A stretch of 64,000 nt of DNA from Lysobacter luteus (GTDB lineage Bacteria; Pseudomonadota; Gammaproteobacteria; Xanthomonadales; Xanthomonadaceae): assembly GCF_907164845.1 (NCBI RefSeq), contig NZ_OU015430.1, positions 248,001 to 312,000 of the forward strand, in the 5' to 3' direction. This document shows positions 51,680 to 59,911 of this stretch, piece by piece. Every line of letters starts with the position of its first letter. The first letter of the stretch is position 1. The notes beneath the pieces are model-generated. The model worked only from the letters and a program-made list of their open reading frames with translations, had not been told where the DNA came from and ran no database searches. The translations under genes were made by a program, and so were the position numbers.

Positions 51680-53525
51680 TGTCGATGCTTCCTTCCCACG
51701 ATTCCGACAGCAGGTCGGTGATCTTCACGCGGATGGTCCCCGCGTCGGCCGGCACCTTGTACTTGCCGGAGACAAGCTCGTTCTTGCCAGGGATATCCAC
51801 TTCGGCAGGCTGCAGTACCGCGCCATCGTAGTTCCAGTCGATCAGTACGCTCTCGACCAACTCGCGCCAATCGCTAGCAGCTTCCTTCTGCAAGGACAGC
51901 TTCTGCAGCAGGTTCATCGGATAGAAGCGCTCGACGAGCAGCTCGCCGTTCTTGATGACGACCTTGGCTTCGGAATCGCGCTTGAACTCTAGGTTGGACT
52001 TGTCGCGCAGGATGTCCACGACCTGCACCTCAATCAGGTAGGGTTTCGCCTCGAATACCAAGTGAGCAGCCAAGTCGGGCTCGTGCCCCATACAGACAAG
52101 CGTGACCTTTTCCACCGGGCGCGTCGGCGCTTCGGACTTTCGGCGGTCCCATGCTTTGTAGTCGAAGCCGGCAATCAGTTCATTGAGGTCGGCGCGGGTG
52201 GCGATACGGTTGACCGGCATGATCTTGACCATGCGGCCGTCCTTCTCGCCGTCGAATACGGTGCTGAATTCGAGCTTCTGGATTTCCAGTGCCTCGATCA
52301 GCAGCTCCTTGGCTTCCAAGGGATTGCGGAACACGTCGTAGTGATTGACGTTGTAAATCTCAAAGCCGGTGTGACGCTTATCCTCGTCGCCAAGCGTCCG
52401 TTGTCGTAGCCGTTCCGCTACTCCGATCAGACGCTTGGTGGTTGTCTGGATGGCACCTAGGTTGATGTCAGCACCGATGTATCTCCGACCAAGGTTCTGG
52501 GCTGCCACAAGGGTCGTTCCCGAGCCCATGAAAAAGTCGAACACGAGGTCATCCTCATTCGATGAGGCTTTAATTATTCGCTCAAGCAAAGCGACGGGTT
52601 TTTGGGTTGGATAGCCTACGATTTCTCCAGAAGGCCCATAAAGGCCTTTTATGTCTGCCCACACGTCAAGCGGTATTCCTTCGCCCTCAGCCAGAAAGCA
52701 ATCCATCCAGACGTCAGTTGGGATCTTTCCGGCTTCGTTAGGTGTCCAGGTATAGCCATCCTTGAAGCCAGGGCGTTTCTTTGCATTCTTCTCGAAGTTG
52801 TAAGTCTGGGACTTTATGTTTTCCGTTTTGTAGGGCACGCGAACGCTGTCGGCGTTGAAGATTCGATCGCTTTCTTTCTTGGACTTGGTGTAATAGAAGA
52901 TGGTCTGGTGCTTCCTTGAGAAGCGCAGGCCAGAAGTGCCGCCACCTTCAGCAAGCCAAATAATTTCATTGGAAAAGCAGTCCGAGCCGAACACTTCGTC
53001 CAATAGTAGGCGCAGGTGGTGACTTTTATGCCAGTCGCAATGTAAGTAAATACTGCCTTTCTCCGACAGGAGTTCGCGCGCCATGATGAGCCGTTCAAAT
53101 ATGAACTGAAGGTACTCATCGTTGTTCCAGATGTCGGTATATTGCTTCTCCTCGAAATTGGTCTGATTGGACTCCGCCTCTTTCCCTTTGCGTGTGATTC
53201 GACGCTTGTAGTCCGCCTTCGAGTCAAACGGTGGGTCGATATAGATCAGATCGACCTTCCCGCGAAACTGCTTCAGTAGATGGCTCATCACCTGAAGGTT
53301 GTCGCCCCAGAAAACCTTGTTGCGCCAACCGTCCACCTCCTCGCCGTGAACTTCCTTTAACTGCGCCGGATAGAACTGCGTCGCCGTGAACGGACGCTTG
53401 CCGCGCCAGTTCAGCATCGGATAGCCCTTGATCGGCTCGAACTCGTACTTGTCGACAGTGGTGGTGCCGCCATCGGGCGTGGCCAGTTGCAGGTTGTCCT
53501 GCGCCGGTGTTGTCGTCTTGCTCAT
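51672..53525 (-). CDS. Beta-class DNA methyltransferase, type III Mod-like
   Basis: A 617-aa DNA methyltransferase with the catalytic motif DPPF (residues 97-100) before the SAM motif FMGSGTT (residues 332-338), the beta order of type III Mod enzymes. The target-recognition region lies between. The C-terminal 270 residues (LKLKAAD-type sequence absent; EVQVVDILRDKSNLEFKRDSEAKVVI) would contact Res. DPPF instead of DPPY points to N6-adenine or N4-cytosine activity; the modified base cannot be told. It is coupled by ATGA to the helicase upstream and by 8 bases to Res downstream. Confidence 0.9.
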   Translation of the reverse strand: MSKTTTPAQDNLQLATPDGGTTTVDKYEFEPIKGYPMLNWRGKRPFTATQFYPAQLKEVHGEEVDGWRNKVFWGDNLQVMSHLLKQFRGKVDLIYIDPPFDSKADYKRRITRKGKEAESNQTNFEEKQYTDIWNNDEYLQFIFERLIMARELLSEKGSIYLHCDWHKSHHLRLLLDEVFGSDCFSNEIIWLAEGGGTSGLRFSRKHQTIFYYTKSKKESDRIFNADSVRVPYKTENIKSQTYNFEKNAKKRPGFKDGYTWTPNEAGKIPTDVWMDCFLAEGEGIPLDVWADIKGLYGPSGEIVGYPTQKPVALLERIIKASSNEDDLVFDFFMGSGTTLVAAQNLGRRYIGADINLGAIQTTTKRLIGVAERLRQRTLGDEDKRHTGFEIYNVNHYDVFRNPLEAKELLIEALEIQKLEFSTVFDGEKDGRMVKIMPVNRIATRADLNELIAGFDYKAWDRRKSEAPTRPVEKVTLVCMGHEPDLAAHLVFEAKPYLIEVQVVDILRDKSNLEFKRDSEAKVVIKNGELLVERFYPMNLLQKLSLQKEAASDWRELVESVLIDWNYDGAVLQPAEVDIPGKNELVSGKYKVPADAGTIRVKITDLLSESWEGSIDNG

Positions 53526-59600: not shown

Positions 59601-59911
59601 ATCTGCATCGGACCAGTACCGGCAACGCTGGCTTCGATCTGTTGGAGAAGGACGGTGGAAATCAGCCGGTACGCTGGATCGAGGTCAAAGCTATGACGGG
59701 CTCACTGGACCATCGCCCCGTAACTCTGTCTCATACCCAGTTCGAGCATGCGCTACAGAAACGCGAGGCTTATTGGCTTTACGTGGTGGAGTTCGCCACG
59801 GCCCACGATAATCGCCGCATTTTGCGAATCCAAAACCCGGCAGGAAGTGCCAAATCGTATACCTTCGATAAAGGGTGGGCTGAGATCGCCCAGGTCAGGC
59901 CGCCGGAGTGA
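56630..59911 (+). CDS. GHKL/sacsin-like ATPase with DUF3883 C-terminus
   Basis: A 1093-aa protein. The N-terminal HATPase domain has HFIYELLQNAEDA (N box, residue about 36-48) and IGRFGLGFKSVYKVSD (G box, near 103-118), as in sacsin/Hsp90-like proteins. The middle is long and helical; a disordered Gly/Asp-rich linker lies near residues 870-940. The end is DUF3883 (GFDLLEKDGGNQPVRWIEVKAMTG), a PD-(D/E)xK-like fold with Glu-x-Lys. GTG 56630 has AGGGGGA upstream. It diverges from the helicase gene over 183 bases, so a shared promoter region is likely. Confidence 0.87.
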   Translation: MASNYEEICRQNREDYGKKGAKKSGDLAAGLYDDETHFIYELLQNAEDALKRRGEDWKGSRQVSFTLSDDRLLVSHCGHPFTENDVRSVCDISESTKDENSIGRFGLGFKSVYKVSDLPEIHSGDEDFVIEGYVFPKRANKTRRDAEETQIFLPLKADKAALKARVTDGLKALGATSLLFLRHIREVSWSIEGGASGLYLRDEPKVLDANVSRIKVIGQASGAPDIDQDWLVFHRDVGKGCVELAFSVIAEKGDQNNWTVQPLLLSPLVVFFPTAYRTNLGFYLQGPFQSTPSRDNIRSDEPWNHHLMSEAASLLVEAMAWLRDSGRLDINSLRCLPLDRAKFPDGGMLTPLFEATLAAFKAHPFLPNSEGGYSHAEESKLGRTSELRELFDGDQLSSLYGVEGTRWLTGDITQDRANDIRQFVIKELEVKEIHPRDIFPMLTTEFLESQSDEWIVRAYEFLKDQGAIRPLLGNTPIVRLADGTHVTAKKDGQLNAFLPTGEETGFPTVRPSVCTSESANEFLASLGLHAPDPVDAVIRKVLPKYQVDGEIDVTSYEDDVARILSAFNTDSASKRSALVNELKKSNFVMAVSTGDGSDYLERPGRVYLATDRLTRLFDGVDDISIVDSGYSCLRGEDARELLEACGAVRYPRPERATHEHSWSDRLKALRVLSGYPESSGQNDYVEDWELQGFAELIEHLPNLAVEHRVDRARLIWESLGDLEERRGRGVFEGTYTWTHHGKRIAPPFPASFVRSLNEAAWVPDAKGDLVRPQLVVFEALGWKENPFLQSKIIFKPNVLDQLAIEADIDPAALDMLRKHKLTAADLAALLTARSGIEQPSERDITLTEPQAEAASAGTEDAAAVVPEGSVYDENKDLYGDDLPDSPEGTYDPEGGDGDRPFDGHAGSGPSVKGRGDVTDGKQVGPSSDGGSRQRTGERGRRPPGSLGGRAFISYVGAHPDLEESDPDGLDQTQRMDIEAVAIQYILEAEPHLHRTSTGNAGFDLLEKDGGNQPVRWIEVKAMTGSLDHRPVTLSHTQFEHALQKREAYWLYVVEFATAHDNRRILRIQNPAGSAKSYTFDKGWAEIAQVRPPE

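What the first reader, a model, noticed from the sequence alone, without database searches (positions are those of the whole stretch)
53522..59911. Divergent four-gene cluster joining a type III RM system to a UvrD/Fe-S nuclease helicase and a GHKL-DUF3883 ATPase
Seen: UvrD helicase-nuclease, Mod and Res overlap (ATGA, 8 bp) in one operon; a 1093-aa sacsin/GHKL-DUF3883 protein diverges from it over 183 bases. Known: type III RM needs only Mod and Res; AddA/AddB-like nucleases act on DNA ends; DUF3883 is a PD-(D/E)xK-like fold often near defence genes. Inference: four proteins, with three nuclease-like domains and an HSP90-like switch, form one composite system in which Res makes ends, the helicase degrades them and the GHKL protein senses or regulates. 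I do not recall this exact set as a named system.
Basis: partly seen in the sequence, partly recalled or inferred. Interest (0 to 1): 0.75.

Follow-up and report, generated by a model that had tools for sequence, protein, structure and literature searches.

The report
Helicase-armed restriction operon with GHKL ATPase
A mobile DNA island carries a bacterial DNA-restriction system that has its own helicase-nuclease and, beside it, an ATPase protein whose relatives elsewhere also sit next to helicases, which suggests a modular anti-virus machine with one part that seems not yet described.

Summary
The genes are real and intact: a one-strand operon of UvrD helicase-PD-(D/E)XK nuclease, Mod and Res (overlaps 4 and 8 bp), and a GHKL(sacsin)-NOV_C/DUF3883 protein diverging over 183 bp. 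The stated coordinates cover only helicase and GHKL; Mod and Res lie at 48968-53525. The three-gene operon is widespread (33 of 39 helicase contigs) and in print: Hudaiberdiev et al. 2017 call Mod-Res the commonest neighbourhood of UvrD-Cas4 fusions. The GHKL gene is an accessory: beside the helicase in 5 of 36 loci with readable upstream DNA. It is not random company. Searches by GHKL itself gave 12 relatives outside the window; all 10 with readable surroundings adjoin a helicase gene: 5 UvrD-nucleases (GHKL with NOV_C tail) and 5 SNF2 helicases (other tail). Two of them show the same four functions in other gene orders. Best reading: a type III-like restriction system with a built-in end-degrading helicase-nuclease and an optional MutL-like ATPase that works with that helicase. 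Composition and linkage are shown; enzyme activity, phage defence and the GHKL role are inferred. New variant of a known kind.

The parts
53522..56446 (-). UvrD helicase fused to PD-(D/E)XK (AddB/Cas4-like, four-Cys) nuclease; first gene of the operon
   Evidence: Pfam UvrD-helicase, UvrD_C, PDDEXK_1; H758, D847, D860, K862 and four Cys invariant in 13 homologues; motifs
51672..53525 (-). Mod: beta-class (DPPF before FxGSGT) N6/N4 DNA methyltransferase of type III kind, variable region about residues 190-290
   Evidence: Pfam N6_N4_Mtase; PADLOC best MTase_III, 218 bits; PDB Mod subunits 6k0w and 4zcf (EcoP15I) matched, E 1e-40 and 2e-36; variable region
48968..51679 (-). Res: SF2 motor (GTGKT, DEAHH) with C-terminal TnsA-like PD-(D/E)XK nuclease (PD 837-838, ExK 856-858)
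   Evidence: Pfam ResIII, Tn7_TnsA-like_N; motifs conserved in relatives
56447..56629 (.). 183-bp divergent intergenic region; in L114, L115 and L222 this place holds a small HTH_17 gene, absent here
   Evidence: no promoter-like site found there
56630..59911 (+). GHKL (sacsin/HSP90-like) ATPase-like protein with C-terminal NOV_C (former DUF3883) PD-(D/E)XK-like domain; accessory module
   Evidence: Pfam SACS, NOV_C; NCBIfam P_loop_sacsin 86.7 bits, cut-off 50; PADLOC TmtA models; N-box E41/N45/D48 and D1003/E1018/K1020 invariant in 5 sequences

Best explanation
A mobile, type III-like restriction-modification system with a built-in DNA-degrading module. Mod recognises a site through its variable region and methylates host DNA. 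On unmodified invading DNA, Mod-Res uses the SF2 motor of Res and cuts with its TnsA-like nuclease. The UvrD-Cas4 helicase-nuclease loads at the ends or nicks, unwinds and degrades, so the cut cannot be repaired. The GHKL-NOV_C protein is an optional module that works with the helicase-nuclease: by analogy with MutL and UvrD, an ATP-gated clamp that loads, activates or licenses it, perhaps adding its own nuclease-like domain. Shown: gene content, intact motifs, operon structure, conserved helicase-Mod-Res linkage, repeated GHKL-helicase linkage. Inferred: every enzymatic step, defence against phages, and the role of GHKL.
For: Helicase-Mod-Res in 33 of 39 helicase contigs, in one order and strand (32 by script, L111 by hand). 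Mod matches type III Mods and varies only in a central stretch while the rest is conserved, as expected of target recognition. GHKL searches: 10 of 10 readable non-window relatives stand directly beside a helicase gene, with tail type matching helicase type. The four functions recur in two other gene orders with distantly related parts (L157; G475). Published parallels: MutL-UvrD and GHKL ATPases in RM operons (PMC2292703); VcSduA, a GHKL + PD-(D/E)xK protein active against phages (PMC12137116, passages).
Against: 31 of 36 readable helicase loci lack GHKL. On the helicase tree the GHKL label needs 5 changes, no fewer than in shuffles (mean 4.8). Four of the five UvrD-type GHKL relatives had first been found through Mod or Res and were rows of the search alignment, so only G475 is an independent UvrD-type find. 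One of two plasmid GHKL relatives looked at (Sulfuricurvum, L213) has no helicase neighbour. Six of 39 helicases lack the family Mod-Res, so the helicase may be a general ancillary. Res has no PADLOC hit and no PDB hit at E <= 0.01. The usual Asp of the GHKL G1 box (recalled) is His76 here, so ATP binding is unsure. The GHKL model was poor (pLDDT 52). No activity data.
Confidence: 0.5

Rival explanations
1. Two independent defence units side by side: a three-gene UvrD-Cas4/Mod/Res restriction system and a stand-alone Tiamat-like GHKL-NOV_C protein, brought together by the clustering of defence genes on islands.
For: Most three-gene operons lack GHKL; GHKL is transcribed divergently; it matches PADLOC TmtA models, which I take from recall to be the single-gene Tiamat system; the island carries another likely defence pair, SIR2-HerA.
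Against: GHKL relatives are next to a helicase in 10 of 10 readable cases, co-directional in L157, G475 and the SNF2 pairs; the block recurs with different flanks.
Confidence: 0.3
2. The helicase-nuclease is a repair or housekeeping ancillary that protects the host from accidental Res cuts or processes ends for recombination, rather than a weapon; GHKL helps it there.
For: Hudaiberdiev et al. 2017 propose an ancillary role analogous to RecB/AddB nuclease domains, in part redundant with RecB. The helicase also occurs with other partners: RNase_T exonuclease, OLD-like ATPase, another methylase/ResIII pair.
Against: It sits first in the same operon with overlapping genes, on mobile DNA, which fits a part of the restriction system.
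Confidence: 0.12
3. GHKL-NOV_C is a guard: it senses failure or inhibition of the restriction machinery and triggers an abortive response with its own nuclease-like domain.
For: Intact D1003/E1018/K1020 in five sequences; divergent transcription.
Against: It is co-directional with the helicase in L157 and G475, which fits a working partner better; no toxicity data.
Confidence: 0.05

Closest known systems
UvrD-Cas4 fusion with type III Mod and Res (Hudaiberdiev et al. 2017, PMC5704561; section 8 read, figure and supplements not seen)
   Same: UvrD helicase fused to a pfam12705 nuclease, encoded with Mod and Res
   Different: The text of that section names HTH, WYL and Schlafen-like neighbours, no GHKL or sacsin protein
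Type III restriction-modification (EcoP15I kind)
   Same: Mod family and motif order; Res with SF2 motor and C-terminal PD-(D/E)XK-like domain
   Different: Extra helicase-nuclease; Res nuclease TnsA-like; Res unseen by PADLOC and PDB sequence searches
MORC/paraMORC GHKL ATPases in RM operons (Iyer et al. 2008, PMC2292703; parts 1-2 of 4 read)
   Same: GHKL ATPases encoded with helicase, methylase and nuclease
   Different: There SF2 helicases and MORC-type proteins; here an SF1 UvrD-nuclease and a sacsin-type protein with NOV_C
Tiamat (PADLOC TmtA)
   Same: All 9 PADLOC models matched by GHKL are TmtA, best E 4e-71
   Different: Profiles of 1063-1782 positions against 1093 aa here; Tiamat as a single-gene system is recalled, whereas this family keeps company with helicases
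VcSduA, a Shedu with GHKL ATPase (PMC12137116, passages)
   Same: GHKL ATPase joined to a PD-(D/E)xK nuclease domain
   Different: Nuclease is DUF4263, not NOV_C; no helicase-Mod-Res operon described in the passages seen
Gabija (GajAB)
   Same: UvrD-like helicase; GajB models match it
   Different: No GajA-like gene among the 9 window proteins scanned; nuclease is fused to the helicase

Membership tests
UvrD-Cas4 / Mod / Res locus type (Hudaiberdiev 2017) | UvrD helicase fused to pfam12705 nuclease | tested here: met
   PF00580 and PF12705 in one protein
UvrD-Cas4 / Mod / Res locus type (Hudaiberdiev 2017) | Mod and Res adjacent | tested here: met
UvrD-Cas4 / Mod / Res locus type (Hudaiberdiev 2017) | Helicase inside their monophyletic fusion clade | not tested
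   their sequences were not at hand
Type III restriction-modification | Beta-class Mod of type III kind with variable recognition region | tested here: met
Type III restriction-modification | Res subunit of the type III family | tested here: inconclusive
   Pfam ResIII above cut-off, but no PADLOC hit, no PDB hit, TnsA-like nuclease; fold search gave general SF2 motors and type ISP LlaBIII
Type III restriction-modification | ATP-dependent cleavage and one-strand methylation | not testable with these tools
   needs bench work
Tiamat | TmtA protein | tested here: inconclusive
   nine TmtA models match, none given with a system cut-off
Gabija | GajA (OLD ATPase-TOPRIM) beside GajB | tested here: not met
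   no OLD/AAA_15 match among the 9 window proteins scanned
Shedu (VcSduA kind) | DUF4263 nuclease domain | tested here: not met
   GHKL protein matches only SACS and NOV_C at E <= 0.01
DISARM | drmA/drmB (DUF1998)/drmC (PLD) genes | tested here: not met
   no such domain among the 9 window proteins scanned

The most novel reading that the evidence does not exclude
Sacsin-type GHKL proteins are a general class of dedicated helicase partners in defence loci, with a swappable tail matched to the helicase (NOV_C with UvrD-Cas4, a Cys/His-rich tail with SNF2). Here one turns a type III-like restriction system into a four-part cut, load, unwind and degrade machine, a kind of mismatch-repair logic turned on invaders: methyl mark, nuclease, MutL-like clamp, UvrD.
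Probability: 0.35. Interest if true: 0.72.

Novelty: new variant of a known kind. Interest (0 to 1): 0.5.

Why it matters
Type III restriction is usually treated as a two-protein affair. A widespread version with its own helicase-nuclease has been on record since 2017; in what I could search I met no bench test of it. If GHKL is a helicase partner, restriction gains a MutL-UvrD-like step, and bacterial sacsin/DUF3883 proteins gain a testable function.

Tried and rejected
Gabija, DISARM and Shedu: see membership test. DrmD-like SNF2 helicases appear only beside distant GHKL relatives (L303: 362.6 bits, cut-off 610). MADS: the small HTH of L114 scores 76.8 against the MAD1 cut-off of 80; it is also an excisionase-type HTH and is absent from the window; a paper search for MADS listed only unrelated papers among its 8 rows.

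Led nowhere: AlphaFold of GHKL on 5 sequences (pLDDT 52), so no fold search was made with it; fold search with the Res model (pLDDT 71.8) gave mostly general SF2 motors; the promoter scan found no site in the divergent region; no second copy of the tRNA 3' end in the genome, so the far end of the island is not placed.

Limits of the counts: many viral contigs were found through Mod or Res, so 33 of 39 is not unbiased. Helicase-first sets, with the family Mod and Res downstream: plasmids 10 of 12 loci at 900 bits or more (of 16 regions fetched; 1042 records had some match and were not all examined); genome contigs 3 of 6 at 900 bits or more, the three misses ending 1.0-2.9 kb downstream; viral contigs 14 of 17 (L232-L248; misses: fragment L245, L247, and L248 = L157 with another Mod-Res). 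Several loci are near-copies (L007/L008/L116; L118/L120). L111 was counted Mod-positive by hand in two counts, because its stop-to-stop frame overlaps the helicase frame. In G199 Mod is in two frames. The genome draws of 369 and 398 overlap in part.

Full report
WHAT IS THERE. The operon runs on the minus strand: helicase 53522-56446, Mod 51672-53525, Res 48968-51679, with ATGA and 8-bp overlaps; the GHKL gene (56630-59911, plus strand) diverges across 183 bp. Domains: UvrD-helicase + UvrD_C + PDDEXK_1; N6_N4_Mtase; ResIII + TnsA-like nuclease; SACS (sacsin GHKL) + NOV_C, the former DUF3883; catalytic motifs are in place. From about 22 kb the window has 55-63% G+C, against 68-75% before it, and at that border stand a tRNA-Met gene and a tyrosine integrase. 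None of the 9 other genomes of the genus (12 of the family) that were searched has the helicase at E <= 1e-150; one of 8 further genomes of the order has helicase, Mod and Res without GHKL. The finding's coordinates omit Mod and Res.

THE THREE-GENE OPERON. In plasmids, the 14 listed records whose Mod hit covers 95% or more at 52% identity or more (Nitrosomonas, Yoonia, Phaeobacter, Blastomonas, Vibrio, Tunicatimonas, Spirosoma, Enterococcus) are all among the top helicase records as well. Of 16 helicase regions fetched, 10 have the family Mod and Res downstream (Spirosoma with two genes inserted); Peribacillus (L019) has a distant Mod-Res pair, Priestia (L016) another N6_N4 methylase with a ResIII protein, and Annamia, Geminocystis, Nostoc and Fusobacterium none. 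One search took 39 contigs with a helicase of 900 bits or more: 33 have the family Mod and Res downstream; the six others are L010, L016, L022, L023, L025 and L247. With G759 it is 34 of 40. Of 41 contigs with a Mod of 500 bits or more, 34 have the helicase upstream, L112 is cut off, L125 and L127 have Res but no helicase, and L141, L142, L143 and L153 have neither in reach. In 369 genomes of the class, seven besides the window had a Mod at E <= 1e-80: G074, G190 and G199 with helicase and Res, four weaker ones (G022, G028, G083, G316) without the helicase. In 398 genomes of the phylum, two besides the window at E <= 1e-120: G569 with the helicase, G687 (473 bits) without.

ALREADY IN PRINT. 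Hudaiberdiev et al. 2017 (PMC5704561, section 8 read) describe a UvrD-Cas4 fusion of pfam12705 whose most common neighbourhood is type III Mod and Res, and propose an ancillary role. The three-gene link is therefore correct and known. The section names no GHKL or sacsin protein; I did not see the figure or supplements.

SPECIFICITY MODULE. Across 10 near loci, Mod identity falls to 0.12-0.30 in four consecutive 25-residue blocks (about residues 190-290), while helicase blocks stay at 0.70-0.97 apart from both ends and Res blocks at 0.51-0.98 apart from the first. This looks like exchange of target recognition on a fixed machine. Lone Mods in four viral contigs may be self-protection (inference).

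THE GHKL GENE. It is divergent and adjacent to the helicase in the window, L114, L115, L222 (genome G569) and L026 (Nitrosomonas communis; both genes split). Of contigs with at least 3.4 kb upstream readable it is present in 4 of 34; adding G759 (absent) and L026 (present), in 5 of 36. In the helicase tree (40 rows, quick method), four of the five GHKL rows lie in one starred nine-row clade, mixed with GHKL-free L005, L006 and L113 and with L111 and L124, which cannot be read upstream; the label needs 5 changes, as many as in shuffles, so it has come and gone. None of 8 window flanking proteins matches 13 relative loci (11 contigs), so the block, not its surroundings, is shared. A small HTH_17 gene stands between GHKL and helicase in L114, L115 and L222 only, of 39 loci looked at; the window lacks it.

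SEARCHING BY GHKL. Viral contigs: four relatives. Class, 369 genomes: window and three. Phylum, 398 genomes: window and five. Of these 12 non-window relatives, G316 and G409 have no readable upstream. The other 10 all stand directly beside a helicase gene: five beside a UvrD helicase with nuclease domain (L224 = L114, L225 = L115, L226 = L157, G569, G475), five beside an SNF2-type helicase in frames of 1039-1243 aa (L227, G042, G082, G425 by Pfam, G421 by 61% identity to that of G425). The first five end in NOV_C with ExK (G475). The tails of the second five, read by eye, are different and Cys/His-rich, and Pfam found only SACS in the G421 protein. Four of the first five were already known from Mod or Res searches and were rows of the search alignment; G475 and the SNF2 group were not. 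What the search adds for them is that no full-length NOV_C relative without a helicase neighbour turned up. Of 23 plasmid records with GHKL-like hits two were looked at: Methanomethylovorans (SNF2-type helicase adjacent) and Sulfuricurvum (NERD gene adjacent, no helicase).

OTHER GENE ORDERS. L157: helicase, GHKL, HTH-IrrE protein, N6_N4 methylase, ResIII protein with a weak RE_endonuc match, on one strand. G475: N6_N4 methylase, BPTD_3080-family restriction endonuclease (1128.9 bits, cut-off 800), UvrD-PDDEXK, GHKL-NOV_C on one strand with tight junctions. The methylase, restriction and helicase parts are only distantly related to those of the window, so the same four functions were brought together more than once or kept through replacement. 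This is the strongest evidence that GHKL belongs with the machine.

MECHANISM. Iyer et al. 2008 (PMC2292703, parts 1-2 of 4) noted GHKL ATPases with helicases, methylases and nucleases in RM operons and recalled that MutL binds UvrD in mismatch repair. VcSduA (GHKL + PD-(D/E)xK) acts against phages and was modelled as a dimer with a clamp-like middle domain (PMC12137116, passages). DUF3883 has been called a REase domain (PMC3710099, passages). I therefore favour GHKL as an ATP-gated partner of the helicase-nuclease. A caution: the usual Asp of the GHKL G1 box (recalled) is His76, invariant in five sequences.

NOVELTY. Paper searches for the four-part set: one search found none; some searches gave 5, 1 and 1 papers; one search gave 23, of which 20 were listed and five seen beyond the listing (PMC2292703, PMC3710099, PMC12137116, PMC12458937, PMC13373217). 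In what I saw none describes the GHKL partner. The library lacks most subscription papers. I rate it a new variant of a known kind.

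Noticed in passing
window 34041-37192 (+): Overlapping SIR2_2 and HerA/DUF87 genes, like the SIR2-HerA defence pair (name recalled).
   Followed up: no
window 22871-24331: tRNA-Met followed by a tyrosine integrase at the G+C drop: likely left end of an integrated island. No second copy of the tRNA 3' end in the genome.
   Followed up: partly
window 26944-28020 (-); 31880-33238 (+); 47934-48701 (-): ABC-three-component CTD6 protein, a transposase-like protein (HTH_38 + rve), and a MobA/MobL relaxase-like frame just downstream of Res.
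   Followed up: no
L227, L299, L300, L303, L304: Sacsin-type GHKL genes directly after SNF2 helicase genes (HEPN_Swt1 domain in three; the one of L303 is DrmD-like below cut-off); possibly an undescribed pair.
   Followed up: partly
L214:7901-9871; L022:7444-8826; L020:12916-15684; L010:8517-9260: Other partners beside the UvrD-nuclease: OLD-like ATPase between helicase and Mod, RNase_T exonuclease, SbcC-like AAA_23 ATPase, pentapeptide protein.
   Followed up: partly
L141, L142, L143, L153: Viral contigs with a Mod of this family but no helicase and no Res by the thresholds (L143 has a weak Res-like fragment about 8 kb on): perhaps phage self-protection.
   Followed up: no
L114:940-1632 and L115:971-1663 (-): A 230-aa protein without Pfam match (the L224 copy scanned), 85% alike in both, follows GHKL; not in the window.
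   Followed up: partly
L026 (Nitrosomonas communis Nm44): Helicase and GHKL genes are each split into two frames, by decay or assembly error.
   Followed up: no
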